34,375 nt of DNA from IMG/VR virus record IMGVR_UViG_3300047552_000244, positions 1 through 34,375 of that record. The stretch is one strand, 5' to 3'. Position 1 is the stretch's first letter, and each line of letters begins with the position of its first letter. The notes under the pieces were generated by a model, which ran no database searches, was not told the DNA's origin, and was given only the letters and a program-made list of their open reading frames with translations. Positions 3,461 through 33,960 of this stretch are shown piece after piece. The position numbers were made by a program, and so were the translations under genes. Origin of the DNA: a virus.

Positions 3461-3892
3461 TCACACCTCCAAGCCAAGAGCCTTCTCTATAGACCATCCA
3501 TAAGAATAAAATCTCTGTGCGACTGTGCTTCTCTTAGCACCGACACGTCTTACCCAATTTGAAAACGTATCTGTTATATTATTTATTGTGAACATTCTGT
3601 TATAACTCGTATTGTTCATTTGCTGAATTCTGCTAACCCATCGACAATTATCTTTATCATAATCTCCGTCGTTATTTATCCTGTCGAGTTGTAGCCCGTC
3701 AGCGTATCCAGAAATCATGTCCTCATGAAAGTTCTTGAATTGCTCCCACCTATCACAATACCTAATTCCACGTCCACCATAAGATGAGAACTCGTTATAT
3801 TTCTTATTATTGCAACGAGTTTTCATGTTATACCAAGCCCTATAAAACCTCGTTCCGTAGAACTCCTTTGTTAGTGGCGTTTGTATAGCCAT
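3461..3892 (-). CDS. HNH-type homing endonuclease
   Basis: This 143-residue protein has the arrangement of free-standing phage HNH endonucleases: FYRAWYNMKTRCNNKKYNEF, YGGRGIRYCDRWEQFKNFHE, then LQLDRINNDGDYDKDNCRWV and a Q-x-x-N-x-T segment. The C-terminus (TDTFSNWVRRVGAKRSTVAQ to GWSIEKALGLEV) looks like a small helix-turn-helix DNA-recognition module of the type found in intron-encoded nucleases. It sits between two tail genes without disrupting either, as expected for a mobile endonuclease gene. Two relatives are in the window (15321-15758 and 33409-33960). Its cleavage site is unknown; intergenic homing is inferred. Confidence 0.8.
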   Translation of the reverse strand: MAIQTPLTKEFYGTRFYRAWYNMKTRCNNKKYNEFSSYGGRGIRYCDRWEQFKNFHEDMISGYADGLQLDRINNDGDYDKDNCRWVSRIQQMNNTSYNRMFTINNITDTFSNWVRRVGAKRSTVAQRFYSYGWSIEKALGLEV

Positions 3893-5273: not shown

Positions 5274-7184
5274 TTATTTTATCTCTGGCAACCTCTTCTT
5301 CGATGGTTTATATCTGAACCCATATTTCTTGAATATGCTGCTCTTGATCTCCTCGCGCTTCTTTCTCAACATATCAGACTTGTCACTATCTGAAAGAGAA
5401 TTATACCGACCATCGTTCTTTGCCCTATCAAACCATTCTTTATAATCAGAATTGAAGTCTTTATTCGCCTTTGCGAACCTCTCATCACCGATCTTATCTC
5501 TGAACTGCAATATTTCCTTGCCTGTCTTTGTTAGCCAATCGACATCTGACGAATATGTATTTGTTCCAATACCAAGAGCGTCGGCCATCATAGCCAACAG
5601 TAATGGTGCTGAGTCGGGGTCGTCACGGAGTTCCATGAAATTCAACACAGGCAACGGAGTAAACAGGTTATTCATCTCGCCAAATAATGTCGGTTTCTTT
5701 CCTTGAAAGTCCTTGCCTTTTAAGATATCCCTTGCGATACCAGCCGCAGGAGATAACTTTCCTTCAAAGAAACTCAATAAGACATCGTATCCTGTCTTTG
5801 CTCCGAACCGATCCTCATTTAACTTTGTGACAATCTCCGTGGTAGCGTTCTTCGACGAGAATGTAAGCAACCTTGATGCCAAGACGACAATACTTGACAT
5901 CCCACCGCTTACGTCAAAACGGGTATTCCCAATCTTAATCTTTCCAAAGTCTGCGCTCCTGGGATCCTCTTCAATATCAGCACCAAGAGCCTTTGCGATA
6001 GCCAATATGATAGCGACTGCACCGACAACTTTGACAAGGTTCTTGACGGCCTCCTTACGCACAGCCGGAGAAATGTTCTTATCCATTGCGTGAGCCGTGA
6101 GAAGATCAATATTGCTCTTTAAGAATCGCGGTGAGAAGAAGATATTATTTAATGGCTTTGCCGCAGGTTCAAGCGCACCAATATCGCCACGCCCTGTCAG
6201 AGAGTTGACCAACTTGCCAAGTCCTTCAATATCACCACCAGATTTAGTAATCGTATCGGCCAACCTATCAAATACATCAGCGCGTGTGCGATACTGCCAA
6301 GCCGTAAAAGCGTCCTGTGATCCTTTGAACACTCTGCCCAACAGCGGAATCTTTTCAGGGAGGTTCGTCGGGTATGCTTCTTCCATAACACCGACAGCAA
6401 GACGTTCTTTCTTATACAATCCGTTGACAGCATTAGGACGAGACATAACGTCTGCCCTGACCTCGATCATCGCGTCCTTGCCTGTCATGCTATTCCAGAA
6501 ATCTCCAAAAGACCTTGCTGAGTTGACAGCCCAGATATCAGGCTGAGTAATAAGCGTCTTTAGACCCTGCCGACCAATAACGCTGTTATCAAATGAAGCC
6601 TTTAAAGACTTTGCAAATCCAGCGACATTCGTTACTGCCTGTCCCCAATTAGACGGCTTGATATACTCTGTCAGTTTCTTGCGTTCAGATTCGGTTTTAA
6701 GACCATTATAATAGTCATCAAAAGCAACCTTCGCCCGACCATACTCTAACCGATCGCCACCAGTCTTAATGGCTTCACGCTTCTCAAGAACATCCTTCGC
6801 CAATGCAGAGATATTCCCGGCCTCTTGCATGGTGACTGTCATGCCTAATTTATGAGCAACAAGGTCAGCCAAGAAAACATCATATTCCTTTGGATTTAAG
6901 AACTTGTCCATCTTCTCAACACGAGCCAATATGTCGCGTTTAACCTCTGGCTTTAACCCTGCAACCTCTTGCGCCCAGGATACAATGCCTTGCTGTTGAG
7001 CCTTTAGAAGCATCTTGGACTCAAAGAGAGCGTTCACACCTTCGGCATTGGTCTTGCCAAGTATCTTAGCAAACTCAGCACGGCGTTGTTCGGATGTCAT
7101 ATCAAGCAACTTCTCAGGCGTGATCTCGCCAGACTTGATCTTCTCCATGAACGCTTTTGTAAGGTGTTTAGGAATACAGAGCAT
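5274..7184 (-). CDS. Internal virion/DNA-ejection protein, C-terminal part of a polyvalent-type protein
   Basis: This 636-residue protein starts MLCIPKHLTKAFMEKIKSGE. Such a segment (CIPKH, then MTSEQRRAEFAKILGKTNAE and FESKMLLKAQQQG) is usually found in the middle of very large phage ejection/polyvalent proteins, not at their N-terminus. Residues about 345-430 hold the conserved end region: NNIFFSPRFLKSNIDLL, one hydrophobic helix (AVKNLVKVVGAVAIILAIAK) and EEDPRSADFGKIKIGNTRFD. The ATG overlaps the stop of the 33-residue membrane gene (TAATG). It probably acts with the 1010-residue protein upstream as the equivalent of T7 gp16, entering the cell envelope with the DNA. I see no lytic transglycosylase motif. 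Confidence 0.68.
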   Translation of the reverse strand: MLCIPKHLTKAFMEKIKSGEITPEKLLDMTSEQRRAEFAKILGKTNAEGVNALFESKMLLKAQQQGIVSWAQEVAGLKPEVKRDILARVEKMDKFLNPKEYDVFLADLVAHKLGMTVTMQEAGNISALAKDVLEKREAIKTGGDRLEYGRAKVAFDDYYNGLKTESERKKLTEYIKPSNWGQAVTNVAGFAKSLKASFDNSVIGRQGLKTLITQPDIWAVNSARSFGDFWNSMTGKDAMIEVRADVMSRPNAVNGLYKKERLAVGVMEEAYPTNLPEKIPLLGRVFKGSQDAFTAWQYRTRADVFDRLADTITKSGGDIEGLGKLVNSLTGRGDIGALEPAAKPLNNIFFSPRFLKSNIDLLTAHAMDKNISPAVRKEAVKNLVKVVGAVAIILAIAKALGADIEEDPRSADFGKIKIGNTRFDVSGGMSSIVVLASRLLTFSSKNATTEIVTKLNEDRFGAKTGYDVLLSFFEGKLSPAAGIARDILKGKDFQGKKPTLFGEMNNLFTPLPVLNFMELRDDPDSAPLLLAMMADALGIGTNTYSSDVDWLTKTGKEILQFRDKIGDERFAKANKDFNSDYKEWFDRAKNDGRYNSLSDSDKSDMLRKKREEIKSSIFKKYGFRYKPSKKRLPEIK

Positions 7185-7285
7185 TATTCACCCTTCTCGT
7201 ATTTATTATAAAGCCGACGCATCTCGCAGAAGAATACGATACACAGAAACGATAAAGCCAGAATGATAAAGTTTGCAGATTCCAT
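7184..7285 (-). CDS. 33-residue single-pass membrane protein
   Basis: This short frame starts at an ATG overlapping the stop of the 1010-residue gene (TAATG) and ends with a TAA overlapping the ATG of the 636-residue gene (TAATG). GGAG lies upstream. The protein begins MESANFIILALSFLCIVFFC (one hydrophobic helix of about 16 residues) and ends with a positively charged tail (EMRRLYNKYEKGE). The two coupled junctions and the helix-plus-charged-tail design support a real gene. Possible roles are an ejection-complex membrane subunit or a small lysis/holin-like protein. Function is unknown. Confidence 0.6.
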   Translation of the reverse strand: MESANFIILALSFLCIVFFCEMRRLYNKYEKGE

Positions 7286-10200
7286 TAGCACTCCAATGAA
7301 GCCACGAAGCCAGCCCAGTCCATCTTCTTCGCGGCTTTCTTCGTGGATTCTTTGACTTGGTTTACTGTGTTCTTAATGTCTGCCTTGACCTTTGCCTTGC
7401 CGACCTTTTTCTCAACGGCATCTGTTCTTGACTTCTTGAGGTTACGGATTGCGGTCACAGGATCCTCTGGAACGCCGGAATCAAGAGCCTTGATTCTCTG
7501 CCCTAGCTCAGTAGCCATCGCGGTTGCCTGTTCAGACATAGCAAGGTCGCGTAGGGTATCAACATCGCCTTCCATTGTGGCTTTAATACGGATGCCAGTA
7601 TAGAGTTCCTGAGCGCGTAGGCCGTCTTGCTCTGGTGCTTCACCAAGAGCGATACGTTTGGCAAGTTCATAATCGTCATTGATAAACGCAGACACGCGGT
7701 TAGCAATCTCTTCCATATTCCTTGTCTGGTATGTCGGAAGATCGCCCAAGTCTTTTACAAGACCTTCTTTTATTGTGTCGGCTTCAATAGAAACGGAAAG
7801 ACCGCGAGGCTTGTCGCCTTCGGGTTGTGGTTGGTCTGATGGTGGATCAGGGATCTGCGGAACAATCGGGACTTCAACAGTTGGATCGTTTGTCGCGTCA
7901 ATCAACTCTTGGTCTGTGAACCCAATTTCTTCAGCTGATTGAGCCTCACCAATGATGCCGACAAGCTCATCAACTTCTTCCTGTGTTCCACCGGCTTGCT
8001 CATAATCCATTCTTTTGCGTTCATACTCTCTATTCTCCTTTAATGTCTTAACAACATAAGGATCGTTCTGCTCTATATTCTTTACAAGTATATCATAATC
8101 TCTTTGCTGAGTTGCAGTTAATTCTTCTCCATTGGCAACTTTATCAAATATCATCTTAGTCCTTGGCATAGTTATTCCGAGATTCTGCCACCATGTTGGA
8201 CGCTCAGATGCCAGCCTCCCTGTGACTCTCGTTGGCCCATCCGCATAATCTGAATATATTAATCTACCACCTCGCTCAAGACCGCCAAGATATTCTCCAT
8301 ATTTTCTTGCAAGATACCTTTTTTCATTATTCACAATATTCTCATCAGGGATAGGTGCGACATCATACTCAACGTCCTCGGCTGGCTTCTGTGCCACCTT
8401 CCCCTTCGCCGCATTGAACTCGGCGGTGAGTTGGGATTTGGTCTGCAATCTCTCTGGGTATAATATGGCAATAGACTTTTCTGTCTTTGTGCTTTTTCCC
8501 GGATTAACAAACTCACTCAATAAAACATTATCGAAACCTTCATTCTTTATTAAATCAACAATTTCTTTATCGTCGAGAAGTTCCCACAATTCTTCTGACT
8601 TGTTAGGATTCAAACCTTTTTTCTCTGCAAGCGTCGCAAGTTTATCCCCAAATAATTCTGCTTTACTTGGTGTTCTTCCGAAGTATTCGGCAGACTTACT
8701 TGACGGTATGCCGTTACTTAAATCAAGTTGGCTTTTAAGACCACCATAGACTTCCATAACATTCTTGCCAAATTGTCCTGCAAACTCGCCATTCTCCGAA
8801 ACAAAAGCGACTGGACTTTTGACTTTAGTTTCTGACATAAGACCAAATCGCTTTGATTCTTGAGGAGAGAACCTTTCAAACTTTGCGTTTGTTCCATGAT
8901 ATAACGGTGTACCCTTACTCGCCACATACTCCTCTGCCGTGGCTGTGGGATTGTCGGCGATAAACTTCTCTACACCAGTCTGCTCAACCATCGGCGCGAC
9001 CTCGGCTGGTGTAGCAACCTCCGTCTGCTGTGCAATAATCTCATCAGCGACCTTCGTTATGATCTCATCGCTGACCTCTGGCTCTGCTTCAACCCTTTTC
9101 TTTAAGTTCTCAGCATACGACAACGCCATCTGTCCTCCGGCAGGGACAGAGAACGCAGCCAGTTCAACCAATGATTCCTCGATAGATGGAACAGACGCGA
9201 TAACCCTGTCCATAATAAACGACGGATCAACAGTAGACCGACCATCAGAGGTTGCACCAAAATCCTCAACCCCAGACACAGCCCGTAAGAAGTTCCCCCA
9301 ACGCTCCTCACCATACTCCTCAAGGATTCCATCAAACTTTGTCTTATCAGCCAATTCTTTTGCAAGTCCACCTGCTTTTAACTTATCTGTGAGCCTCGTG
9401 ATCGCCATAACCATCTTATTATTCGCTAACTTGGCAACACCAGGGGCAATAGCCTTATTTAGAGGGCTTAACATCGCTCCTGCAACCTTGCGGATAGTTC
9501 CCCCGGCCTGTTCTGACGCAACCTCAAACGCGAGATCACCAGTTGCTTTTATAAGAGAAGTGAATGGCTTTGACTTGCCTTGATCTAAAATCTTAACGCC
9601 TTTATCAGTAAGGCTTATTCTATCGTCCAACATTCTCTTGGCTGTTCCAGAAGGGATCTTTACCGCGCCAAGCATGGCTGTTCTTGTCGCAATGCTCCCG
9701 ACCGTCCCTGCGGCTTTCCTTGCAACGATCCTTGTGACAGACTTCTCCATCACTTTGCTCAATAACTTCTCCGCGCCTTTACGGGCAACCATCCGACCAC
9801 CAACAGCCTGTGGCCCAGTTGCCAGAAATTCCAACATAACAGCAGGGAGTTCCTTAGTAACATTCACAACCTGACCACCGAGAGAATACCCTCGCTCCTG
9901 TTCCTCAACCTTATCTCTGAGATACTCATTGACGGCCAGAACGTCTTTATTCCTCTGAACCATCCCGTCGCCTTCTTTATAATCATTGGCTTGCAGACGG
10001 TTCAAAGACGACATTATTGCAATACTCTCCACACCTTCTTCTGCCGATGTTCCAAAAGGAAGGAACGTCCAGGGCTTTGCGTTCCTTGCAAACGCCTCAA
10101 ACGCACCGATCTTGCCTCTATCCTTGTAAGACTTCCTGAGTTCTTCTGGGACACCAATGAGGCTCTCGGCAGACTCGCTCGGAGCAGAGAATAATACATT

Positions 10201-10317
10201 CGCTTCTTCGTCATCATACTGAACAGGCTGCATAGCCGCGATATCGCCAAGCCTAAAGACCTTGCGATCCTCGACAACTGGACGCTCTGCAACCATATCC
10301 GAAAGACGCTGTGCCAT
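7285..10317 (-). CDS. Large internal virion/ejection protein with ADP-ribosyltransferase-like domain
   Basis: This 1010-residue protein begins MAQRLSDMVAERPVVEDRKV and is placed like T7 gp15/gp16. Residues about 150-320 are Ala/Gly/Lys-rich with amphipathic or hydrophobic stretches (ELPAVMLEFLATGPQAVGG), as in ejected proteins. Residues about 470-630 resemble the ADP-ribosyltransferase domain of phage polyvalent proteins: TPLYHGTNAKFERFSP, then SPVAFVSENGEFAGQFG, FDNVLLSEFVNPG and KSIAILYPERLQT. Residues 815-835 form a Pro-rich linker. The following part (ATAMATELGQRIKALDSGVP) looks like a polyvalent-associated helical segment. It is translationally coupled to genes on both sides. The virion role is likely; ART activity is inferred from motifs only. 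Confidence 0.7.
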   Translation of the reverse strand: MAQRLSDMVAERPVVEDRKVFRLGDIAAMQPVQYDDEEANVLFSAPSESAESLIGVPEELRKSYKDRGKIGAFEAFARNAKPWTFLPFGTSAEEGVESIAIMSSLNRLQANDYKEGDGMVQRNKDVLAVNEYLRDKVEEQERGYSLGGQVVNVTKELPAVMLEFLATGPQAVGGRMVARKGAEKLLSKVMEKSVTRIVARKAAGTVGSIATRTAMLGAVKIPSGTAKRMLDDRISLTDKGVKILDQGKSKPFTSLIKATGDLAFEVASEQAGGTIRKVAGAMLSPLNKAIAPGVAKLANNKMVMAITRLTDKLKAGGLAKELADKTKFDGILEEYGEERWGNFLRAVSGVEDFGATSDGRSTVDPSFIMDRVIASVPSIEESLVELAAFSVPAGGQMALSYAENLKKRVEAEPEVSDEIITKVADEIIAQQTEVATPAEVAPMVEQTGVEKFIADNPTATAEEYVASKGTPLYHGTNAKFERFSPQESKRFGLMSETKVKSPVAFVSENGEFAGQFGKNVMEVYGGLKSQLDLSNGIPSSKSAEYFGRTPSKAELFGDKLATLAEKKGLNPNKSEELWELLDDKEIVDLIKNEGFDNVLLSEFVNPGKSTKTEKSIAILYPERLQTKSQLTAEFNAAKGKVAQKPAEDVEYDVAPIPDENIVNNEKRYLARKYGEYLGGLERGGRLIYSDYADGPTRVTGRLASERPTWWQNLGITMPRTKMIFDKVANGEELTATQQRDYDILVKNIEQNDPYVVKTLKENREYERKRMDYEQAGGTQEEVDELVGIIGEAQSAEEIGFTDQELIDATNDPTVEVPIVPQIPDPPSDQPQPEGDKPRGLSVSIEADTIKEGLVKDLGDLPTYQTRNMEEIANRVSAFINDDYELAKRIALGEAPEQDGLRAQELYTGIRIKATMEGDVDTLRDLAMSEQATAMATELGQRIKALDSGVPEDPVTAIRNLKKSRTDAVEKKVGKAKVKADIKNTVNQVKESTKKAAKKMDWAGFVASLEC

Positions 10318-11744
10318 TATTTCACCAATTCAACTAAAGGTTCACCATCTTCATCGAAACCGACAACCATAACAACTCTTCCATCAGGCAGAGAGATTGT
10401 CTGATCCTTCTGATACGCAGACTTATTCGGGTTGATATCAACCTTTGCCTTTTCAACAACTTTATTATAGACTTCATCAATATTAACATCGCCCTTAGAG
10501 TTATTGATCTCGGAAACAAAGTCGCTCATTATCTTCTGCTCTTGCTTCCTGTCTGCTCCGACCTTGCCAACCCACGCTTTGACAGCCTCAAACTTCTTTG
10601 ACACTCCATCCCACATCGAGCCTTGCTTTGCACCGTCTTTAACAGGACTCAGAAGGTCATTATTCTTAGCGTTCGCCAATGCGATAAGGTTCTGAAGGTC
10701 ATCTCTATTTATCTTGCCATCTGCACCGCCACGGAGAGTGTTCTTAATAAGCGTCGTGATATGTTCTTTATTACCGGCATCGAATATCAGGCTCGCCATC
10801 TTCACATACTCGTCGCTGTCTGTCTCGGAATCGACAGAGAACGGGGAAGAAATAAAACGAATATACTCTTGACCAACATCTTGCCTGATCTCGCCTGACC
10901 CAACCATCTGGCTGACAGTTGAGATATCAACATACTTCCCATTCGCAGCATCTGTCATTAGACCGATCTCATTACTTATCTGAGACTCTTTGACAGCAAG
11001 TTCGTCCTGTTTCTTATTGCGTTCAGCCATGTTCTTAGCAACCCGAGATGCTTCCTCGACCTCAGCAGATGATAATGACTTGTATGCTCCAGACTTTTTC
11101 CTGTTCTCAACCTGGTCAGGGATGTTCTGGATATCAAAAGCCAAGTCTGCCTTATCGAACTCTCGGTCTTGTGCAATTCTCATCTTGGCAACGTCGTCGG
11201 CATCAAATATGCCAGATCGCTGTGAAGAAGTGAGCATATCGTTATATGAGTTGCGTATCACCCTCCTACTCGTATCATCGCTCGCCTCAGCATACGACCT
11301 TGCGTATTTATCAGCAATCGTCAGGAACTTTGCCTGTCCGTTCTGGATTTCTTTCTTCCGGAAGTCATTGTTGATAGCAGAGAAGGTGTTATACCCGGAT
11401 AACTGGAACTTAGCGGTCATTTCCTTCTGCAACAACTTATCTGAAATCTTCGATGAGTGCTTGGAGATAGCCTCGTCAATCTTCGCCCTGTATTCAGAAG
11501 CCTTTGACGGATCTTGTTCATTCGCGGCCTGTGACTTGATAGCATCAATATCAGCCTCAAGACCCAACGTGGCATCGGTCTGTTCGTTGAAATCACGAAC
11601 CTTCTTTAACTGCTTGACGCTATCGTCTAACGTCGCAAACGCCTCCGTCGCGTTCTTCCATCCGCCAGTAAAGTTCTCCATCTGGACTTGCGGAGTAGCC
11701 GTCTGTTGGATATCGACTTGCTGTTGGTATTCAGGTATCTTCAT
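10317..11744 (-). CDS. Internal virion protein, gp15-like position
   Basis: This 475-residue protein starts at MKIPEYQQQVDIQQTATPQV. The in-frame extension upstream of this ATG overlaps the preceding gene and is not protein-like. The sequence is strongly helical, charged and Gln/Lys/Asp-rich throughout, with FTGGWKNATEAFATLDDSV near the N-terminus, a pattern common in phage internal core proteins. It ends with a small domain around ISLPDGRVVMVVGFDEDGEP. It lies between the gp14-like and ART-containing ejection genes. It is probably part of the core or ejection complex. There are no enzymatic motifs. Confidence 0.65.
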   Translation of the reverse strand: MKIPEYQQQVDIQQTATPQVQMENFTGGWKNATEAFATLDDSVKQLKKVRDFNEQTDATLGLEADIDAIKSQAANEQDPSKASEYRAKIDEAISKHSSKISDKLLQKEMTAKFQLSGYNTFSAINNDFRKKEIQNGQAKFLTIADKYARSYAEASDDTSRRVIRNSYNDMLTSSQRSGIFDADDVAKMRIAQDREFDKADLAFDIQNIPDQVENRKKSGAYKSLSSAEVEEASRVAKNMAERNKKQDELAVKESQISNEIGLMTDAANGKYVDISTVSQMVGSGEIRQDVGQEYIRFISSPFSVDSETDSDEYVKMASLIFDAGNKEHITTLIKNTLRGGADGKINRDDLQNLIALANAKNNDLLSPVKDGAKQGSMWDGVSKKFEAVKAWVGKVGADRKQEQKIMSDFVSEINNSKGDVNIDEVYNKVVEKAKVDINPNKSAYQKDQTISLPDGRVVMVVGFDEDGEPLVELVK

Positions 11745-11745
11745 G

Positions 11746-12282
11746 TTATGCCACCGTCGTGCTGTTATAAACCGTGTTCCCTCTGGTTGTGACAGTCTGC
11801 ATCTCGCCACCACCTCTAATGCTCATTCCTTGACCAGATCCACCCTGCATCGCCATCGCAGTTCCTATCTTGAGCAATCCCTGAGATGCCTTACTCCATG
11901 CTGCTGTGCGAGCGTTCCCTGCCGCCATCCGCATCTGTAACGCCTCAAACCCGATCTCATTAGCCCGAGCCGCTGCATTGAGTTTGGTATTCACAACATC
12001 CAACTGAATCTTCTTCTCTGTCTCTGCCCATACAGATGCCGGGGATCCTGTGAACTTGACCCCTGCCTTTGCGTACATCGCTCTCTGCCTGGCAATAAAC
12101 TTATCCCCTGCTTGCCGGACTTGGCTTGCTTGTAAATCCCCACCAGCCAACGCGCCTTTAGCAGACACATCAAGAAGCCCTGCCTGTGCCTTATATCCAG
12201 AAGCAGCCGCCATGAGTTGTCCGGCTTCACCGAAGGATTCAATGCCGCCTGTAATCGTGCTTAACGCAGTTAATGTATCCAT
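11746..12282 (-). CDS. Internal virion protein, gp14-like
   Basis: This protein is 178 residues if it starts at the ATG at 12282 (MDTLTALSTITGGIESFGEA); a GTG at 12291 would add three residues. It is Ala/Gln-rich and helical, with SGYKAQAGLLDVSAKGAL, RQRAMYAKAGVKFTGSP and ARANEIGFEALQMRM. This is the usual pattern of the small internal virion protein downstream of the nozzle in T7-like phages. The C-terminus is Gly/Thr-rich. It likely forms the first part of the ejection channel (gp14 role), by analogy of pattern and gene order. Confidence 0.7.
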   Translation of the reverse strand: MDTLTALSTITGGIESFGEAGQLMAAASGYKAQAGLLDVSAKGALAGGDLQASQVRQAGDKFIARQRAMYAKAGVKFTGSPASVWAETEKKIQLDVVNTKLNAAARANEIGFEALQMRMAAGNARTAAWSKASQGLLKIGTAMAMQGGSGQGMSIRGGGEMQTVTTRGNTVYNSTTVA

Positions 12283-12283
12283 A

Positions 12284-14491
12284 TCAATCACTCACAGTCA
12301 GTTTTGGATAAATAGCCAATAAATGAAATGGCAACGGCAACTCCTGCGTTGCCTTGATTGTCTTCTCCTTTGTCCACCCCTGAGGAAACACAACCTCACG
12401 ATCACCGCTGAACATAGGCAACGCTTCGTCCATATCATCATCAGACGACCTGAATGGAATAACGTCCTGTGTGTCTGCTGTCCCAACCTTGCACCCAACG
12501 CTGTCCTTCAACCGAACCGTGCATTTCCCAAGCAGCTTCGGCTTACCCTGTGCTGTCCCTGTGGCAGACCCTTGCTCTAAATCAAGTGTCTCAATGGTCG
12601 CCGTATACCCAAGACCAACATGAACCTTACTCGCAGGGCTGACCAATGTGATCGATCCATCAGATACCGTCCGTTCCGGGTGCGCCGCGCCATCAACCAA
12701 TACCTGTACAACCTCGCCTTCCAAATGCTCAAGCCCTGTGATCGTTGACGTTGCCGTTCCGCTATACGTCAAGCCCGACTGAACAAAGAACGCATCAGCA
12801 ATAACACCGAAATCCTGTTCAGACACATACTCAACATACCGCCTTACAACGCTGTCAATCGTGCGCTTAATAACGACCCATACCTGATCCTCTGTCCCGT
12901 TAGGAATGACCGCGACACGCTCAACCTCGCCATCCCAATCCTGGCGTGTCCATCCCTTTACCTCGTTCTTCTGCTCGCGTGTGAGTGTCGCCATCGTTCC
13001 ATCGGTCAATACGCACCAGAGAATGTTATAAGGATATCGCTGTAACGCCATCTCAACAACGCCATCACCTAAAATATGGTCTGACAAATAGGTTGTATTA
13101 TCCGTGATGTATGAATCAGCATCAAGGGAGTAGGCAAATTGCCCAAGAACCTTGCCAGACCTTTCGACGTAATACACATACGACCCGATACGCACAGGCC
13201 GGACATTGGCCGACCCGTTCTCATTCTGCTGTTTGGCAGATATGTTCGTAGGCGTGATCGGCTCTGCACTCGACCCAGACGACGCGGTGAACGGCCCACC
13301 AGCCGACCCAATATTGATAACCGACGTTGGGTATATCCAATTCAACTTATCGACCTGATTTGACCCCAAGACGTAATGCACAGCGTCCTCGTCAGTCACA
13401 GTCCCGTCATCGCCGGTATTCGTCTGATAATTCTCATACTCCTCAATGACAGATCCCCATAGACCAAGAGGCTTCCTCGTTGTGGCAATGTGGTAAAGCC
13501 TGTTCTCATAGAACGTGCAATCCTCTGGATACCCCTGTTCAGCAGACCAAGCACCCTCTGACCACTCATCCGTTGCCGATGCGACAACTGTCACAATGAC
13601 GGTTGCCGTCGCACTTGTCGCACTCGCCCTCGCCGTGATCTTCACATACCCGTCGCCAATTTTGAAATACGCTCCGACATGAGTGGCTAAAAATAAGGAC
13701 GCTGAGGCGGTCAGGGTGACACTCCCTGTCGTTCCAGAGGGGGTAATGGTGGTTGCTGTGGCGTTCTCGTCCAGGAATGGCGGCCATGTGTAGGTGTCGT
13801 AGGTGTATTCTGCCAGCGTCCAAGTCGTATGCCCGAAACGGGATAACTTTCGAGGAGTATATCCCTTGCAATCAATGTACATTATGTCGCCTTGCTGAGT
13901 GACCCTAAGGTATCCAAGATCGGCGGTCGCATACGGAGTGACCAATTCGTACACCTTCTCGATTGTGCCGCCGCTACTATACGTCGTATAACCCGTGCTG
14001 TTGACATTATTCCCATCCTCATCGGTAAGTTCAAACGTCGTTGACGTGCGATTCTTCGTCATAAATCGTCTGTTATTAACCTGCGTCATCCCAACAACAG
14101 ACTCAATATCAATCGTTGATCCGTTCGCTGGGGCAGTTCCAGACAAAGTGACAACGGCAGGATTAGCCTTTGATATACCACTAATATTTATTGCTGATTC
14201 AACAACAGACCCTGAGGCTCGGAATACCCTCATGTAAAGATTCCCGAACTCAAGCATATAAGAGTCACCGGCAGAGAAGATGAACGGGATCATCTTGACA
14301 GCACCGCCAGCCTTTGTCTTTGCGACATAGTGCGTGCCAGGGGTCTTGAACGCGGAACCGTAATGAGTGACCAAGACGTTCTCAAGTGTCTTGCCACAAG
14401 CAAAGTAAGGAACAACGTCGGTGCGGCCATAGAGTGATGGCGAAGCCTCACCTCCGGCAAAGTTGGAAATTGGTTTGGATGATTGAGCCAT
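12284..14491 (-). CDS. Tail tubular protein B / nozzle protein
   Basis: The ATG at 14491 overlaps the previous stop (TAATG) and gives a 735-residue protein starting MAQSSKPISNFAGGEASPSL. Typical podovirus nozzle features follow: ENVLVTHYGSAFKTPGTHYV, IPFIFSAGDSYMLEFGNLYM, and an E1-FCCH-like insert (residues about 115-180, with VGMTQVNNRRFMTKNRTSTT and TGYTTYSSGGT). Then come YLRVTQQGDIMYIDCKGYTP and PEDCTFYENRLYHIATTRKP. T7 gp12 is 794 residues, so the length fits. It forms the distal tail tube to which fibres attach. It follows tail tubular A after one small gene. Confidence 0.85.
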   Translation of the reverse strand: MAQSSKPISNFAGGEASPSLYGRTDVVPYFACGKTLENVLVTHYGSAFKTPGTHYVAKTKAGGAVKMIPFIFSAGDSYMLEFGNLYMRVFRASGSVVESAINISGISKANPAVVTLSGTAPANGSTIDIESVVGMTQVNNRRFMTKNRTSTTFELTDEDGNNVNSTGYTTYSSGGTIEKVYELVTPYATADLGYLRVTQQGDIMYIDCKGYTPRKLSRFGHTTWTLAEYTYDTYTWPPFLDENATATTITPSGTTGSVTLTASASLFLATHVGAYFKIGDGYVKITARASATSATATVIVTVVASATDEWSEGAWSAEQGYPEDCTFYENRLYHIATTRKPLGLWGSVIEEYENYQTNTGDDGTVTDEDAVHYVLGSNQVDKLNWIYPTSVINIGSAGGPFTASSGSSAEPITPTNISAKQQNENGSANVRPVRIGSYVYYVERSGKVLGQFAYSLDADSYITDNTTYLSDHILGDGVVEMALQRYPYNILWCVLTDGTMATLTREQKNEVKGWTRQDWDGEVERVAVIPNGTEDQVWVVIKRTIDSVVRRYVEYVSEQDFGVIADAFFVQSGLTYSGTATSTITGLEHLEGEVVQVLVDGAAHPERTVSDGSITLVSPASKVHVGLGYTATIETLDLEQGSATGTAQGKPKLLGKCTVRLKDSVGCKVGTADTQDVIPFRSSDDDMDEALPMFSGDREVVFPQGWTKEKTIKATQELPLPFHLLAIYPKLTVSD

Positions 14492-14754
14492 TAGACACCC
14501 ATCTTCCACGCTTGCTTATTATTAACACTTCCCTCACCAGAGCCGAGATTAAGGATAGTGCTTGTGCGTTTCTTTTTCTTGCCGTTGACACTACTCGCTG
14601 CGGATGATACAAGCGGCCCTGTATTTACAGAGATAGGCCCAAATGTTCCACCATATTTATAATTAGGAGAGTTCTCGCGGAATGTCTTTCCGTTACTGCC
14701 AACGGTGTTCTGTTTGTATAAAGCGTCTGTTATTGGTCTGAAGTTAAATGCCAT
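14491..14754 (-). CDS. Small protein between tail tubular A and B
   Basis: This 87-residue basic protein starts MAFNFRPITDALYKQNTVGS, with a Gly/Ser/Asn-rich middle and a KKKKR patch. I do not recognise it. Its position between tail tubular A and nozzle, with a TAATG junction to the nozzle gene, suggests a minor tail or assembly protein. The low-complexity composition argues against an enzyme. Confidence 0.5.
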   Translation of the reverse strand: MAFNFRPITDALYKQNTVGSNGKTFRENSPNYKYGGTFGPISVNTGPLVSSAASSVNGKKKKRTSTILNLGSGEGSVNNKQAWKMGV

Positions 14755-14763
14755 ATAATATCC

Positions 14764-15321
14764 TCAAATTCCATCCACCATACTTCCGCGAATTATCTCC
14801 GTCCCTTGCCCTTCCTGCCCATCCGACCACTTTGCTTCCTTCAGATCACGGATAGCAACAGCATCCATATTAGCCGCAAAGGTCGCGTTCTGCGTTATCC
14901 CAAACGCCAGGTCTGCCGCCAGTCTGGATGCAAATGCCTTCACAAACCCCTTGCTGAACTTCGTAGGATCCGTCTCACGCGACACATACTTGATACGGGC
15001 ATCGTCAGAATTGGTGTATAACTTGTTCCCATAAATAGCGAATGGATAGTCACCTTCAAACGTCACCACCCTTATACAATCCGACGGCAACTGATACACC
15101 AATGTCCATGCGTCCATCACGGGTGTCTCAGACAACAGCGACAACTGACGCTCTTTAATGGCAAAGTTCCAGTTATGCTCTTCAAGCATGGCATCCCGCG
15201 TGTCGTCATAGATCGCGTTTATCTTCCTGCCCTGCTCGGTCGTCCCAGGCATATCCTGTATCCGATCCGCAGAAAGCATCGTCAACGCCCTGTTTGCGAT
15301 ACTTATATTTGATATTGCCAT
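14764..15321 (-). CDS. Tail tubular protein A / head-tail adaptor
   Basis: This 185-residue protein resembles podovirus gp11-type adaptors: NRALTMLSADRIQDMPG, KINAIYDDTRDAMLEEHNWN, FAIKERQLSLL, YQLPSDCIRVV and AFASRLAADLAFGITQN. T7 gp11 is 196 residues, so the length fits. The ATG overlaps the stop of the HNH gene upstream (TGATG). It forms the ring between portal and nozzle. Function assignment is strong from motifs, size and gene order. Confidence 0.85.
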   Translation of the reverse strand: MAISNISIANRALTMLSADRIQDMPGTTEQGRKINAIYDDTRDAMLEEHNWNFAIKERQLSLLSETPVMDAWTLVYQLPSDCIRVVTFEGDYPFAIYGNKLYTNSDDARIKYVSRETDPTKFSKGFVKAFASRLAADLAFGITQNATFAANMDAVAIRDLKEAKWSDGQEGQGTEIIRGSMVDGI

Positions 15322-15758
15322 CAGTTCACCTTTTTATTTAATGTTATTGCGCTTTCATTAGACCATCCACTATATATTCTGCCTAACAATGTTGCATATT
15401 TAACATTACATCTGCTATCTTCGCTCCAACTCTTAGCGCACTTCTTCTCTCCAAACGCTTCAATTATTCTATTATCGCTACGATTCCTCTGATTATCAAC
15501 TCTTGTAACAAATCGGCAATTCAATGGACAATAATTACCATCATTATCTATTCTATCTATTTCTAAATTATCTTTGTACCCATTAGACATAGCCCAAATA
15601 AAGAAATTCTCGAACAACATCCATTCTTCACATATTGATATTCCTCTCGCTCCATAGTCATTATATGAATTACAATATGGCTTCATGCATCTTTTTTTCA
15701 TATCTTGCCACATATAATATATTCTTGTTCCATATTGTCCATGCCTATACATTGTCAT
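15321..15758 (-). CDS. HNH-type homing endonuclease
   Basis: This 145-residue protein has AAGGA five bases before its ATG. Its order of motifs matches the gene at 3461-3892: YGTRIYYMWQDMKKRCMKPY, NDYGARGISICEEWMLFENF, LEIDRIDNDGNYCPLNCRFV and an asparagine-rich end of the nuclease region. The C-terminal module (EKKCAKSWSEDSRCNVKYAT to YSGWSNESAITL) is a possible DNA-recognition element. The base composition is visibly more AT-rich than in the flanking structural genes, consistent with separate acquisition. It overlaps the DUF115-like gene by 14 bases and leaves tail tubular A intact. Confidence 0.8.
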   Translation of the reverse strand: MTMYRHGQYGTRIYYMWQDMKKRCMKPYCNSYNDYGARGISICEEWMLFENFFIWAMSNGYKDNLEIDRIDNDGNYCPLNCRFVTRVDNQRNRSDNRIIEAFGEKKCAKSWSEDSRCNVKYATLLGRIYSGWSNESAITLNKKVN

Positions 15759-18756: not shown

Positions 18757-19311
18757 CTATTGCCGGTCAAATTGTCGCATCTGTCTGCTCGCCTGTAAAT
18801 GACGGATGACGATATCTTTACCCTCTACCATCGGACTGTCAAATATCGCGCAATACTCAACTGGCAGATACCCGACATCGATCCCTTCAGGAAGAGACCC
18901 AACAACAAGTCTTTGATCCCATTCCCTATTGTTATTATTGCAAAGATTTGCCCAATTTGAAACAAAATTCTTAACTATTTCATTATTCCTCAAGAACATC
19001 GTCCCTGACAAAACTTCCTCGTCGGAGTGTCCCCAGACCCTGCCCTTATAGAACATCACATCGTTTGTAGTCCTGTCAAATAACTCAGGATATCGTTCAA
19101 CCCGTGCGTCAACATCACAATAAATAATATTAGTATTAAGCGTGTCCAGGCACTCTTTGATGAACGTCGGCTTATACGATGTGTTCAATATCCACGATCC
19201 ACGATCATCAACGTGTTTGCAATAACACTCGACACCAACACGAGCGCACGATGCCATGAACTCCCGTGCGTTGTCCGTGTATCTGTCTGTGTAATATCCG
19301 ACAAACTTCAT
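18757..19311 (-). CDS. Glycosyltransferase, GT-A fold type
   Basis: This 184-residue protein starts MKFVGYYTDRYTDNAREFMA. The NIIYCDVDARVERYPELF segment supplies the D-x-D metal/nucleotide-sugar motif. GTMFLRNNEIVKNFVSNWAN and REWDQRLVVGSLPE match the second half of nucleotide-diphospho-sugar transferases. It has no membrane segment. Its ATG overlaps the stop of the GT2 gene (ATGA), and it lies just upstream of the scaffold. It probably transfers a sugar to a virion protein or host glycan. Donor and acceptor are unknown. Confidence 0.72.
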   Translation of the reverse strand: MKFVGYYTDRYTDNAREFMASCARVGVECYCKHVDDRGSWILNTSYKPTFIKECLDTLNTNIIYCDVDARVERYPELFDRTTNDVMFYKGRVWGHSDEEVLSGTMFLRNNEIVKNFVSNWANLCNNNNREWDQRLVVGSLPEGIDVGYLPVEYCAIFDSPMVEGKDIVIRHLQASRQMRQFDRQ

Positions 19312-19934
19312 ATCATCTCTTGTGGCAGTAGTAATGCCATTCCTCGACGACGTTCATAGACAGCCTGATCGTGTGACAACTTCTCACTCCGACCTTCAGA
19401 GTGCGTAGCATCAGGGCGACACCCGGAGTTCGGATGGTAATTCTTCAGCCTCGCGTCAGGACAATAAATAAACTTGCCTTCACGCCGCGCAAGGTCTCCA
19501 ACCTCTGTGTCAATATAGAAGTGCCGGTATTCCTCGCAATATAACGGAGCGTGTCTTTCTTTGAACACTTTTCCGATACATTGAAACGCATCCTCGTTAC
19601 ATACCATGTTCGTTACTTTCATCCCGATCACAATGTCGTGTCCGTGTTCATCAAGCAATCGCTCCAACACCTCGAACGCCCCAGGTTCATACTCAATGTC
19701 GTCCGATGCCATCACAACATCACCGAATGATACGGAGACCATGTAATTGAACGCCTGTGGCACGGTCATCTTGCTATCTATCTTGATATCAACATAAGGT
19801 CTATTTAATGCCGCATCCTTTGGTATGTCCGACGGAGTTGTGGCAACGATGCACACCCCAACCCACTCTGGTATGCTCTTTAAGCACACAGCGAGTTTAT
19901 CAGGCCTACCTTTTGTCGGGATCATTACATTCAT
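19308..19934 (-). CDS. GT2-family glycosyltransferase
   Basis: This 208-residue protein opens MNVMIPTKGRPDKLAVCLKS, the usual start of a GT-A family 2 enzyme. VPQAFNYMVSVSFGDVVMAS followed by DDIEYEPGAFEVLERLL carries the acidic metal site. CPDARLKNYHPNSGC and the HDQAVYERRR end fit the acceptor half. It is coupled by ATGA overlaps to the methyltransferase before it and the second glycosyltransferase after it. It is a soluble enzyme. Donor and acceptor cannot be predicted. Confidence 0.78.
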   Translation of the reverse strand: MNVMIPTKGRPDKLAVCLKSIPEWVGVCIVATTPSDIPKDAALNRPYVDIKIDSKMTVPQAFNYMVSVSFGDVVMASDDIEYEPGAFEVLERLLDEHGHDIVIGMKVTNMVCNEDAFQCIGKVFKERHAPLYCEEYRHFYIDTEVGDLARREGKFIYCPDARLKNYHPNSGCRPDATHSEGRSEKLSHDQAVYERRRGMALLLPQEMI

Positions 19935-21073
19935 GTAATCTCAATCTCTGGCAACGGGAATATGAACTTCTTATCCTTCTCACGCGATAAGATGTTATCT
20001 CTAAAGTGCCACGGAAGAACCAAGTAATAATCAGCCTCACACTCAGCGACAATCGGGATATTCGTTCCAGGCGTGACACGACCAATCTTCTCTTCATTCA
20101 CCTCAACAATGCACGGCAATAACGTGGCATCTATCCCACACACCTGCAACAGCGTGTTCCCCTTTGTGCTTGCACCATACCCAACAACCTTCTTGCCAGC
20201 GGCTCTCAGCCTCTTTAACACGGCAACAAGAGCGTCCTTGTGCCCTTCAATAAAGTCAATGAACGCCGAGAAGTCTATCCCGTCCTCACGCGCAATATAC
20301 TCAGCAACCTCGGCACACTCAACGCCACCCTTTGATAACACCACAAGAAACGACCCGCCATTGACTCCATTTGTCTCAATATGATTTATCACCAACCCTG
20401 CCCTATCAGCCATCCACTTGATCTGCTTGACCCCGTAATACTCAACGTGTTCATGGCAAATAGTGTCATACGAATTGTTATCTATCATCCCAAGAACATA
20501 CCCTTGCTCAAATATAACAACGCCATCATGTGACAGCACAGAGGCAACGTCCTTTACGAACTTCATCGGATCCTCAAGGTCATACAGCATCGACAACGCC
20601 GTGATGACGTTGAACTTGCCGTTGACCTTATCCGGCGAGAAATAGTCTGCCGTCTGCTCGATGCCTGGCTTGTAGTATTTTGAGAACTTGCTTATGGTAG
20701 GATCGATGCCAACACGACGTAGCCAGTCAGGGTAATGCCCCAACAGCGTTCCATCGTTACTCCCTATATCCAACACGGCAGAACTCGTATCAAGAGCCAC
20801 ATACCGCTTGGCGATGTTCACCACGTCTCTAAGATGTGAGACCATCGACTTGTTCTGTCCTGAGCGATACCCGTAAATCTCATTCTTATAGAAATAATCC
20901 TTATCGTAGACCTGTTTCAACTGAACAAGCCCACAATCATTACACCGCACCAGGCTCATATCCGCATACTCGACCTGCTCGCCTGGCTTTAGGAATGTGC
21001 TTGTCATCGCCACGTCTACAAAAGATACGATGTCCTGTATCTCCCCAGAACACAGCCGACAGCATTGGATCAT
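19931..21073 (-). CDS. Sugar C-methyltransferase (NovU/TylC3/TcaB9 type)
   Basis: This 380-residue protein has the three-part layout of SAM-dependent deoxysugar C-methyltransferases. The N-terminal zinc domain has C5-x2-C8 and C44-x2-C47 (VRCNDCGLVQL). The SAM-binding core has LDIGSNDGTLLG (residues 101-112), and the catalytic HEHVEYYG motif lies near 208-214. The C-terminal domain has KKVVGYGASTKGNTLLQ (294-310). Family members methylate NDP-4-keto-6-deoxysugars using SAM. No sugar-nucleotide synthesis gene is in the window, so the substrate would come from the host or from elsewhere in the genome. It forms a coupled operon with two glycosyltransferases. Confidence 0.85.
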   Translation of the reverse strand: MIQCCRLCSGEIQDIVSFVDVAMTSTFLKPGEQVEYADMSLVRCNDCGLVQLKQVYDKDYFYKNEIYGYRSGQNKSMVSHLRDVVNIAKRYVALDTSSAVLDIGSNDGTLLGHYPDWLRRVGIDPTISKFSKYYKPGIEQTADYFSPDKVNGKFNVITALSMLYDLEDPMKFVKDVASVLSHDGVVIFEQGYVLGMIDNNSYDTICHEHVEYYGVKQIKWMADRAGLVINHIETNGVNGGSFLVVLSKGGVECAEVAEYIAREDGIDFSAFIDFIEGHKDALVAVLKRLRAAGKKVVGYGASTKGNTLLQVCGIDATLLPCIVEVNEEKIGRVTPGTNIPIVAECEADYYLVLPWHFRDNILSREKDKKFIFPLPEIEIT

Positions 21074-23432: not shown

Positions 23433-23870
23433 TCACACCAATCCTTTCATATACGTCCTTTGAAATGGTCTATACCCAACGCGTTTGTAGAAATCACAAG
23501 ACGCGTCCCCTTCAAGACCTATCATCATTATACTCACACAGCCTCTTTTGACTAAAACTTCTTCAACTTTCTTCAACAGCCTCACGCCGTGACTTCTCTT
23601 GTCCTTCCGCACATACCACACAACCTCTTGTCCGACGACCTGTGCGCTAAATACCAGAGGCGATATGAATACAACGATCATCCCGACAACTTCACCGGCA
23701 TCCTCAACGACCATCTTTACGATATGATCCATCCCAATGAACATATCAAACTGCTTTGACGCTTCCTCAAAGTCAATCAACATCCCGTCCTGTTCAAGCC
23801 TCTCTGCGCCGAACTCCATCGCCAACTTGATAACAGCGTCCTTATCTGTGGCAACCATGTCTCGTATCAT
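23433..23870 (-). CDS. GNAT-family N-acetyltransferase
   Basis: The ATG at 23870 overlaps the terL stop (ATGA) and gives 145 residues starting MIRDMVATDKDAVIKLAMEF. The fold pattern is that of GNAT enzymes: VVGMIVVFISP, then EVVWYVRKDKRSHGVRLLKK as the acetyl-CoA binding helix region, and CDFYKRVGYRPFQRTYMK at the end. GNAT genes beside the terminase occur in several podoviruses. The acceptor (protein, small molecule or antibiotic-like) is unknown. Confidence 0.75.
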   Translation of the reverse strand: MIRDMVATDKDAVIKLAMEFGAERLEQDGMLIDFEEASKQFDMFIGMDHIVKMVVEDAGEVVGMIVVFISPLVFSAQVVGQEVVWYVRKDKRSHGVRLLKKVEEVLVKRGCVSIMMIGLEGDASCDFYKRVGYRPFQRTYMKGLV

Positions 23871-25168
23871 CTTACCGCCGTTTTCTGTTGCCACCTGCGC
23901 TCTGTCAGATCATTCTTCGCCCTGATCGGCATGGCGAATGTCAACGCCAACGCGTCTGCCGTGTCCGGCGAACGCCCCAAGCGTTTCTTTATCTCGTCCT
24001 TGCTCTCCAACTTCATCCTATTCTGCACGTCAAATGAATACGTCGGTGTCACAAGGTCAGACTTCAACGCCTGAATATTTGGCAACTGCCCTACGTTCAC
24101 TATCCACTCGCGCATCTTATCCCACATCTCCATGCGTTTATTCACATAGTGAGGGTTGATCGGAGACGCTCCAAAGTTCACCTCAACAGGCGAATACCCC
24201 AACTGCCTCATTCTGTCGATCACGCCCTCACCGCGCCCAGCGTCAATAAACACCGCGTCAGGCTTGATCCTGTCACATAACGTCGTTAAATGCCCGACAA
24301 GAGCCATGTTATCAACGCCTTTATAGATAATCGGGTCATCAGCCTTCTTCCCGATCCTGACCTGAATAACAGACGAATCATCGCCAAACCTCGCCACGTC
24401 AACGCCAATGATAATAGGATCATGCGTCAACTCAGCAAGGTTATAATTCCGCTTGCATGAGTCCGTCACCATGTCGATTGATATGAGGACATTATCAGAT
24501 GCAGCCGTGAAGTCGCACAGGATCTCTTGACGATATGTCGAGTCTGCCATGACAGAACGGATCTCTGCCATCTCGACCTCTGATATCACGCCGGTCTCAT
24601 CCCCACGATAACACCCAGCCCACCAGTTACTATCCGGCGACATATTCTTTAACGCGTGATTGTATATCTCAAAGAACTGGTTCTGCCCCTTTGGTGTTCC
24701 CATGAACAGACACCAACCATTGCGGTCAGACAACGCCGGACGAATGATCTCAGAGAATAACTCCGGCTTAATCTGTGCGTATTCATCCAGGACGCATCCA
24801 TCGAGATATGTTCCACGAAGCGCGTCAGGGTTGTCAGCACCGAATAGGTATATGCGAGATTTATTAGGCAACTCAACAATGAGATCGCCCTCGCGGTTGA
24901 TTGTTCCGGGGATCGGAGAAGTGTAACGCTTCAAATAATCCCACGCGATCAACTTTGCCTGGCGCAAGAACGGAGCGATATACGCATATCTTCCGTCGGA
25001 AGATGTGTTCATACTCGCCATGCGGATGATGTGATTGATCGCAAGCACCGTCTTGCCTAAGCGTCTGTGTGCGACCAGAACATTAAACCGATGCGATTCT
25101 AATTGTGGGTGAATGATATTTTGAGGAAAGCGGGGCTTATACGGGATAGTTACGATTACTTTTCCCAT
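23867..25168 (-). CDS. terL: Terminase large subunit
   Basis: This 433-residue packaging motor has a Walker A motif AHRRLGKT (residues 33-40), Walker B CVLDEYA (125-131), and a coupling-type motif FMGTPKGQN (155-163). The C-terminal RNase H-like nuclease has GVDVARFGDDSS (D256), AVFIDAGRG (D309) and SPDTADALALTF (D402). It cuts and pumps DNA into the procapsid through the portal. It overlaps the small subunit by 13 bases. It is shorter than T7 gp19 (586), closer to compact terminases, but all key residues are present. Confidence 0.92.
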   Translation of the reverse strand: MGKVIVTIPYKPRFPQNIIHPQLESHRFNVLVAHRRLGKTVLAINHIIRMASMNTSSDGRYAYIAPFLRQAKLIAWDYLKRYTSPIPGTINREGDLIVELPNKSRIYLFGADNPDALRGTYLDGCVLDEYAQIKPELFSEIIRPALSDRNGWCLFMGTPKGQNQFFEIYNHALKNMSPDSNWWAGCYRGDETGVISEVEMAEIRSVMADSTYRQEILCDFTAASDNVLISIDMVTDSCKRNYNLAELTHDPIIIGVDVARFGDDSSVIQVRIGKKADDPIIYKGVDNMALVGHLTTLCDRIKPDAVFIDAGRGEGVIDRMRQLGYSPVEVNFGASPINPHYVNKRMEMWDKMREWIVNVGQLPNIQALKSDLVTPTYSFDVQNRMKLESKDEIKKRLGRSPDTADALALTFAMPIRAKNDLTERRWQQKTAVR

Positions 25169-33335: not shown

Positions 33336-33575
33336 ATGATTGACAAACCCAACAAACGGGTTTATAGTAATGGTATGAAAAAGCCAACATCAAAAGAAAG
33401 GTCGGCATATGCCTCATACCTCGGAAGCATTAGATCAGCAAAGAAAGCAGAAGCAAGCAGAAACAACGGGAAGCTCGGCGGAAGACCAAAAGAGAAAAAG
33501 ACTGGAATATCAGAGGGAGTATGCAAAGAAAAATCCTTGGATGAAGTCTTACTACGGAGCAGAGCAGCGTTGTAA
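33336..33575 (+). CDS. Small basic protein with AT-hook-like motif
   Basis: This 79-residue protein has GAGGAAG upstream. It starts MIDKPNKRVYSNGMKKPTSK and includes RNNGKLGGRPKEKK, a GRP motif common in small phage and plasmid DNA-binding proteins. Relatives often end soon after this motif. Here the frame runs on for about 25 residues (TGISEGVCKEKSLDEVLLRS) in the region that also encodes the start of the HNH gene. The C-terminal tail may therefore be a by-product of HNH insertion. Confidence 0.5.
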   Translation: MIDKPNKRVYSNGMKKPTSKERSAYASYLGSIRSAKKAEASRNNGKLGGRPKEKKTGISEGVCKEKSLDEVLLRSRAAL

Positions 33576-33960
33576 TAACGTAAAAAATCATGCGTACTAT
33601 AAGTATGGTTCGAGGGGTATTAAATTTAAGATGACTTTAGAAGAATTTAAGTTCCTGTGGTTTCGTGATAAAGCGTATGAGATGAAAAAACCCACCATTG
33701 ATAGAATTGATTCAAAAGGTAACTATGAACTTTCTAATTGCCGTTACTTAGAGCATTATGAGAATAGCACAAGAAATTTAAACCCAGTTAAGATCGCTCA
33801 AATATCCAAGAAAGGTAAGGTTGTAAAGATTTGGGATAGTATATCCTCCACAATAAAGGCTCTTAATCTAAATGAAGGAAATCTGTATAGATGCCTGAAT
33901 AATGAAATACCTTCAACAAGTGGATTTGTTTGGAGAAGGATTGGTAGTTTAACGTCTTAA
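33409..33960 (+). CDS. HNH-type homing endonuclease, overlapping gene
   Basis: This 183-residue protein has AAAGG upstream of its ATG. The N-terminal part (EDQKRKRLEYQREYAKKNPW) is typical of HNH endonuclease leaders. The nuclease region has AEQRCNNVKNHAYYKYGSRG, TIDRIDSKGNYELSNCRYLE and ENSTRNL. The C-terminal module (KVVKIWDSISSTIKALNLNE to GFVWRRIG) is a NUMOD/IENR1-like DNA-recognition repeat. It overlaps the basic protein by 167 bases in another frame. It is the third member of this endonuclease family in the window and the only one on the plus strand. Confidence 0.75.
   Translation: MPHTSEALDQQRKQKQAETTGSSAEDQKRKRLEYQREYAKKNPWMKSYYGAEQRCNNVKNHAYYKYGSRGIKFKMTLEEFKFLWFRDKAYEMKKPTIDRIDSKGNYELSNCRYLEHYENSTRNLNPVKIAQISKKGKVVKIWDSISSTIKALNLNEGNLYRCLNNEIPSTSGFVWRRIGSLTS

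What the first reader, a model, noticed from the sequence alone, without database searches (positions are those of the whole stretch)
8428..8910. ADP-ribosyltransferase-like domain inside a virion ejection protein
Residues about 470-630 of the 1010-residue internal protein show the order YHGTN, VAFVSENGEFAGQFG, FDNVLL and KSIAILYPERL. This matches the ADP-ribosyltransferase domain known from phage polyvalent proteins. Seen directly: the motifs and their order. Known: phage ARTs such as T4 Alt travel in the virion and modify host polymerase. Inferred: this phage injects an ART with its DNA to modify host targets at once. The SxE triad is incomplete by eye, so activity is not assured.
Basis: partly seen in the sequence, partly recalled or inferred. 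Interest (0 to 1): 0.72.

Follow-up and report, generated by a model that had tools for sequence, protein, structure and literature searches.

The report
Degenerate ADP-ribosyltransferase module in phage ejection protein
A short-tailed phage carries, inside a protein predicted to be shot into the bacterium with its DNA, a real relative of the enzymes that attach ADP-ribose to other molecules, but two of its three usual active-site residues are changed, so whether it still works as an enzyme is open.

Summary
The gene is on the minus strand (7285-10317). Residues ~460-640 are a genuine ART-PolyVal-family domain. The direct Pfam score is just under cut-off (27.1 vs 31.2 bits, E=8e-6). A profile of seven relatives that excludes the window matches it at 71.5 bits (E=1e-20); the best of 2,000 shuffles scored 9.6. 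AlphaFold (pLDDT 84, pTM 0.79) plus Foldseek gives almost only PARPs, tankyrases and the anti-CRISPR ART AcrIF11 among the top 50 PDB matches.

This family is H-Y-acid, and the window reads H474-F505-S615: histidine kept, tyrosine and acid replaced. Among 19 relatives the acid column is E in only 7. AcrIF11 (H-F-H-D) and mono-PARPs (H-Y-I/L) are active without the canonical triad, so activity is undecided.

The ejection-protein context is well supported by synteny. The domain is a gained/lost module: L030 shares the N-terminal 400 residues but has no ART. Relatives L002, L011 and the cultured Vibrio phage 1.182.O carry ARTs in the same gene region. This is a new member of a known kind (polyvalent-protein ARTs, Iyer 2017).

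The parts
7285..10317 (-). 1010-aa predicted gp16-like ejection (internal virion) protein that carries the ART
   Evidence: ORF; sits between internal virion genes and tail-fibre-position gene, same order as in HTVC035P, Podoviridae sp. ct8d5349 and Vibrio phage 1.182.O
9094..10284 (-). N-terminal chassis, residues ~12-408, shared with ART-less ejection protein of L030
   Evidence: BLASTP 29% identity over 409 columns, E=3e-41; weak LPD14 in both
8398..8940 (-). ART-PolyVal-family domain, residues ~460-640
   Evidence: Pfam E=8e-6; relatives' profile E=1.1e-20; AF2 pLDDT 83.9, pTM 0.79; Foldseek to PARPs and AcrIF11 and viral PolyVal ARTs
8923..8940 (-). TAEEYV lead-in motif, residues 460-465, recurring before YHGT in relatives
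8890..8901 (-). YHGT, residues 473-476; H474 = NAD-binding histidine position (strand 1)
8797..8811 (-). VAFVS, residues 503-507 (strand 2); F505 in place of the catalytic Tyr (GIYFT in canonical relatives)
8770..8790 (-). GEFAGQF, residues 510-516, helix after strand 2; F516 at the position equivalent to the second (nicotinamide-stacking) Tyr of PARP/diphtheria-type ARTs (equivalence by eye)
8455..8484 (-). TEKSIAILYP, residues 612-621, late strand; S615 in the column of the catalytic acid (E in TEYVVYDP of L124), E613 two residues earlier on the same strand
5274..7184 (-). 636-aa next ejection-type protein, partly homologous to a 1582-aa protein of Siphoviridae sp. ctf1B273
10317..11813 (-). 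498-aa protein in the gp15-like position
   Evidence: 27% and 23% identity to equivalents in L002 and L011
11746..12291 (-). 181-aa internal virion protein B-like
   Evidence: phrog_418 'internal virion protein' E=1.3e-14
12284..14509 (-). tail tubular protein B, used to find relatives
   Evidence: phrog_376 E=2e-187; 42% to HTVC010P

Best explanation
The 1010-aa protein is a gp16-like ejection protein of an HTVC010P-related podovirus. Between its N-terminal chassis (residues ~12-408) and its C-terminal segment it carries an exchangeable cargo domain of the ART-PolyVal family (residues ~460-640). Inferred working: the protein is packed in the virion, passes through the tail with the DNA, and exposes the ART fold in or near the host cytoplasm. 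There the pocket built on H474 binds NAD+ and the domain mono-ADP-ribosylates a host target (polymerase, defence or other protein) at the very start of infection. Because F505 and S615 replace the canonical Tyr and Glu, catalysis, if it occurs, would have to be of the reduced mono-transferase kind (AcrIF11-like H-F active site, or substrate-assisted as in PARP10), not polymer formation. Shown: family, fold, gene context, modularity, residue changes. Inferred: packaging, injection, NAD binding, activity, target.
For: Homology: Pfam E=8e-6; relatives' profile E=1.1e-20; shuffle control; hhalign 99%. Fold: AF2 pLDDT 83.9, pTM 0.79; PDB top hits PARP4 E=3.4e-3 and AcrIF11 (6kyf) prob 0.99, nearly all of the top 50 PARP or tankyrase; 38 viral hits at E<=1e-3, many named PolyVal ART. 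Delivery context: gene order and phrog_418 internal virion neighbour; the L011 equivalent has an N-terminal phage lysozyme domain plus two ARTs over cut-off, like the N-terminal peptidoglycan hydrolase of T7 gp16 (PMC8954989). Module: L030 shares the chassis without the ART; L126 has an ART between parts that in L103, L118 and L030 occur without one. Activity plausible: histidine kept; AcrIF11 is active with H-F-H-D (PMC12421852); H-Y-I/L mono-PARPs are active by substrate-assisted catalysis (PMC9189837).
Against: Two of three canonical active-site positions are changed. Direct Pfam score is below the curated cut-off. Foldseek TM-scores are modest (0.3-0.5) and no PDB hit reaches E<1e-3. No proteomic evidence for virion presence. 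Most tail-tubular-B relatives lack any ART, so it is not essential to this kind of virion.
Confidence: 0.5

Rival explanations
1. Pseudo-ART: the ART fold is kept but catalytically dead, and works as a binding module (for NAD+, ADP-ribose, or a host protein) after injection, as inactive PARP domains and the inactive PBECR domain of phage Mu MuF are thought to do.
For: Tyr and acid both replaced in the window. All four ARTs of the window/L002/L011 group lack the acid (S, T, T, Q) while cousins L124, L122, L126, L128 and F116 keep E. Inactive effector domains are known in polyvalent proteins (PMC5512222).
Against: The NAD-binding histidine and surrounding YHGT are intact, whereas inactive PARP9 and PARP13 lost the histidine (PMC9189837). 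The acid is also missing in 12 of 19 surveyed family members, so its loss may be normal for the family.
Confidence: 0.3
2. The domain is a structural spacer of the ejectosome, with no function in the host cytoplasm.
For: Ejection proteins are large, fast-evolving and mosaic (PMC8954989); the active site is degenerate.
Against: The chassis exists without it (L030) and most relatives lack it, so it is an optional addition, not a needed spacer. The same ART family recurs in unrelated ejection or polyvalent proteins.
Confidence: 0.13
3. The motif resemblance is chance and this is not an ART.
For: Direct Pfam score is below cut-off; PDB E-values are only 3e-3 to 1e-1.
Against: Relatives' profile E=1e-20, shuffle control, hhalign, viral Foldseek hits at prob 1.0, and genes at the same place with over-cut-off ARTs.
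Confidence: 0.02
4. A T4 Alt-type injected ART that modifies host RNA polymerase.
For: Same delivery logic: a virion protein with an ART domain.
Against: Alt is of the R-S-E clade (PMC5512222); the window has an H-first active site, and all ART fold matches are to the PARP/diphtheria side. Nothing points to RNA polymerase.
Confidence: 0.05

Closest known systems
ART-PolyVal (Pfam PF18760), Tox-ART-HYD2 clade of polyvalent proteins (Iyer et al. 2017, PMC5512222), prototype CBX87992.1 of Roseovarius Plymouth podovirus 1
   Same: YHGT..FxxF start, aromatic strand 2, G[YF]D strand, late strand ending in P-x-x-[IL]; same placement in large virion-locus proteins
   Different: Window reads H-F-S instead of H-Y-acid; Pfam score 4 bits under cut-off; host protein is a gp16-like ejection protein without an RNA polymerase module
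Vibrio phage 1.182.O NVP1182O_16 (566 aa, cultured, host V. breoganii)
   Same: ART-PolyVal (E=3e-17) in the syntenic ejection-protein gene region of a podovirus
   Different: Active-site reading H-F-Q; shorter protein
IMG/VR contigs L011 and L002 (nearest relatives by tail tubular protein, 53% and 77%)
   Same: ART(s) in the gene at the same place
   Different: L011 has two ARTs and a Phage_lysozyme2 domain; the rest of the protein is not recognisably similar
AcrIF11 (PDB 6kyf), anti-CRISPR ADP-ribosyltransferase
   Same: Fold match prob 0.99, TM 0.53 by target length; also H-F at the first two sites (PMC12421852)
   Different: No sequence match; small stand-alone protein expressed in the cell; uses an aspartate that has no clear counterpart here
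T4 Alt
   Same: Virion-delivered ART (analogy of use)
   Different: R-S-E clade, a different branch of the superfamily; proven activity on RNA polymerase

Membership tests
ART-PolyVal (PF18760) | Homology to the family by profile | tested here: met
   Pfam E=8.1e-6; profile of over-cut-off and related members without the window E=1.1e-20; hhalign prob 99
ART-PolyVal (PF18760) | Pfam's own curated score cut-off (31.2 bits) | tested here: not met
   27.1 bits; relatives L011, L124, L126, L128, L143 and L142 pass
ART-PolyVal (PF18760) | ART fold | tested here: met
   AF2 pTM 0.79 and Foldseek hits to PARPs, tankyrases and AcrIF11, viral PolyVal ARTs
ART-PolyVal / H-Y-[acid] active site | Histidine in strand 1 | tested here: met
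   H474 in YHGT
ART-PolyVal / H-Y-[acid] active site | Tyrosine in strand 2 | tested here: not met
   F505; column is Y10 F5 W3 H1 in 19 members, so this is common in the family; filed as a homologous member, not as a canonical H-Y-acid enzyme
ART-PolyVal / H-Y-[acid] active site | Acidic residue on the late strand | tested here: not met
   S615 in the column (E613 two residues away); column is E7 Q5 T3 S2 V1 C1. Iyer et al. write 'D in strand 5'; the only D near is D596 in GFDN, so the assignment is not fully certain
Polyvalent protein | Two or more recognisable domains of different activity in one virion-locus polypeptide | tested here: inconclusive
   ART plus only a sub-threshold LPD14; the L011 equivalent clearly qualifies (lysozyme + 2 ARTs)
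Podovirus ejection (internal virion) protein | Gene order with tail tubular B, internal virion protein B, gp15-like and tail fibre | tested here: met
Podovirus ejection (internal virion) protein | Present in virions and ejected | not testable with these tools
   needs proteomics / infection assay
T4 Alt (R-S-E ART) | R-S-E active site and Alt/VIP2 homology | tested here: not met
   no Alt/VIP2 family match, H-type motif, PARP-side fold matches

The most novel reading that the evidence does not exclude
Podovirus ejection proteins have an exchangeable cargo slot behind a conserved chassis. A recurrent cargo in it is an ART fold that has lost its catalytic acid (S/T/Q), forming a class of virion-delivered ARTs that work either by substrate-assisted mono-ADP-ribosylation or as NAD/ADP-ribose binders against host defence.
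Probability: 0.3. Interest if true: 0.6.

Novelty: new member of a known kind. Interest (0 to 1): 0.4.

Why it matters
ARTs were reported in only about 3% of podoviruses (PMC9503650), and injected ARTs are known in detail mainly from T4. This shows the same family riding in gp16-like ejection proteins of small (~34 kb) HTVC010P-related podoviruses, as a module that can be present or absent on the same chassis. A cultured relative (Vibrio phage 1.182.O) makes packaging, injection and activity directly testable, and the missing acid raises a clear question: enzyme or decoy.

Tried and rejected
Whole-protein tblastn in phage records: no match; close-relative scan of IMG/VR with the whole protein: none. 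phmmer of the domain against PDB sequences: only a chance hit; with the alignment, PARP12 at E=0.14, not significant. Pfam FapA_N (E=0.0024, 562-652) and LPD14 (E=0.12) on the protein: below cut-off, FapA_N judged chance. LPD38, common in HTVC010P-type and other ejection proteins, was tested on the window's 636-aa protein and not found. A first, looser AF2 model (pLDDT 70) gave weaker PDB hits and was replaced by a trimmed, deeper alignment. An ML tree of 19 ARTs resolved nothing (all forks weak), so no claim is made about whether the podovirus ARTs are one lineage. The kinship-based genome search is not possible for a virus record.

Full report
WHAT WAS CLAIMED AND WHETHER IT IS THERE. The 1010-aa ORF lies at 7285-10317 on the minus strand; the finding gave no strand, and the plus strand of 8428-8910 is full of stops. 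Residues 470-630 are exactly those coordinates read on the minus strand, and all quoted motifs are present in the stated order. The record is a 34,375-base virus record.

IT IS AN ART-FAMILY DOMAIN. Pfam ART-PolyVal matches residues 470-610 at E=8.1e-6, 27.1 bits, four bits under the curated cut-off. The family is rare: 2 of 398 genomes drawn from one bacterial phylum and 5 of 395 from another carry it, and none of 14 control genomes does, so the match is not background. Relatives fetched from IMG/VR include several that pass the cut-off: L011, L124, L122, L126, L128. A profile built from seven ART copies, without the window, scores the window at 71.5 bits, E=1.1e-20. On the isolated domain the score is 73.6 bits against 9.6 for the best of 2,000 shuffles. 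Profile alignment gives probability 99. The lead-in TATAEEYVASKGTPLYHGTNAKFERF is close to MTEEQYVKEHGTPLYHGTNAKFDKF of L124.

FOLD. An AlphaFold2 model from ten aligned ARTs has mean pLDDT 83.9 and pTM 0.79. Its best PDB matches are PARP4 with NADH (E=3.4e-3, prob 0.96) and AcrIF11 (6kyf, prob 0.99, TM 0.53 by target length). Nearly all of the top 50 are PARPs or tankyrases, with Pseudomonas exotoxin A also present. TM-scores are modest, so this is a divergent ART. Against viral models an earlier, weaker model already gave 38 matches at E<=1e-3, many named PolyVal ART.

ACTIVE SITE. That belongs to the R-S-E clade of T4 Alt; Iyer et al. (PMC5512222) place polyvalent-protein ARTs in the Tox-ART-HYD2 clade with H (strand 1), Y (strand 2) and an acid (they write D, strand 5). 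In the window these read H474, F505 and, in the column where L124, L122, L126, L128 and phage F116 have E, S615. E613 lies two residues earlier on the same predicted strand, so a shifted acid cannot be excluded. In 19 aligned ARTs the Tyr column is Y10 F5 W3 H1 and the acid column E7 Q5 T3 S2 V1 C1 (my reading of the alignment; the histidine column is not a fair count because most segments were located by the HG motif). All four ARTs of the window, L002 and L011 lack the acid, and the Vibrio and L120 ejection ARTs read Q and S. Literature gives both ways out: AcrIF11 is active with H-F-H-D (PMC12421852), mono-PARPs with H-Y-I/L work by substrate-assisted catalysis, and PARPs that lost the histidine are inactive (PMC9189837). 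I therefore hold activity at roughly even odds.

CONTEXT AND DELIVERY. Transcription order is terminase, portal, capsid, tail tubular A and B, a 181-aa internal virion protein (phrog_418, E=1.3e-14), a 498-aa protein, the 1010-aa protein, a 636-aa protein, then tail-fibre position genes. Tail tubular B is 42% identical to HTVC010P-type pelagiphages, and the same order is annotated with internal virion proteins in HTVC035P and ct8d5349. L011's protein at this place starts with a Phage_lysozyme2 domain and then has two ARTs, matching the T7 gp16 plan of an N-terminal peptidoglycan hydrolase with the rest going to the membrane and cytoplasm (PMC8954989). 'gp16-like' here means position and plan; homology to T7 gp16 itself was not tested. 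Packaging and injection remain inferred.

THE DOMAIN IS A MODULE. Window residues 12-408 align with L030 residues 45-431 at 29% identity, E=3e-41, yet the L030 protein has no ART. In L126 an ART sits between an N-terminal part shared with L103 and L118 and a C-terminal part shared with L103, L118 and L030, all three of which lack it. Of 49 tail-tubular-B loci with at least 4.5 kb downstream that were not found through an ART or the neighbouring virion gene, two (L011, L100) carry an ART-profile match. The cultured Vibrio phage 1.182.O has an ART-PolyVal (E=3e-17) in the syntenic gene region.

VERDICT. This is a new member of a known kind with a degenerate active site, carried as an optional cargo of a podovirus ejection protein.

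Noticed in passing
window 18757-21073 (-): Glycan-modification cassette between portal and capsid genes: a C-methyltransferase (Methyltransf_13/23/14), a 208-aa protein without a Pfam match and a nucleotide-diphospho-sugar transferase; unusual inside a head-gene block.
   Followed up: partly
window 3461-3892 (-), 15321-15758 (-), 33409-33960 (+): Three short ORFs share an R-I-D/N-x-D/K-G-x-Y-x-x-x-N-C-R-[WFY] motif, HNH-endonuclease-like by eye, but no Pfam match at E<=1e-3; possible family of small mobile endonuclease genes.
   Followed up: no
window 8923-8940 (-); L118 aa 608; L011 aa 844: A short TAEEYV-type motif stands ~8-12 residues before YHGT in six ejection/polyvalent proteins, and also alone in L118 and L011 without an ART after it; 9 hits against 3.1 expected in shuffled proteins. 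Possible linker or recombination seam.
   Followed up: partly
L128 5562-6599: A reverse-transcriptase-like ORF (YVDD motif, DGR-like by eye) lies a few genes downstream of a polyvalent protein with ART plus LPD38.
   Followed up: no
L009 9148-13896: The window's 636-aa protein (residues 278-546) is 30% identical to part of a 1582-aa protein of Siphoviridae sp. ctf1B273, E=5e-17; the window's gene may be a split form of a larger ejection protein.
   Followed up: partly
window 23433-23894 (-): GNAT acetyltransferase next to the terminase gene; HTVC-type relatives have one next to tail tubular B instead.
   Followed up: no
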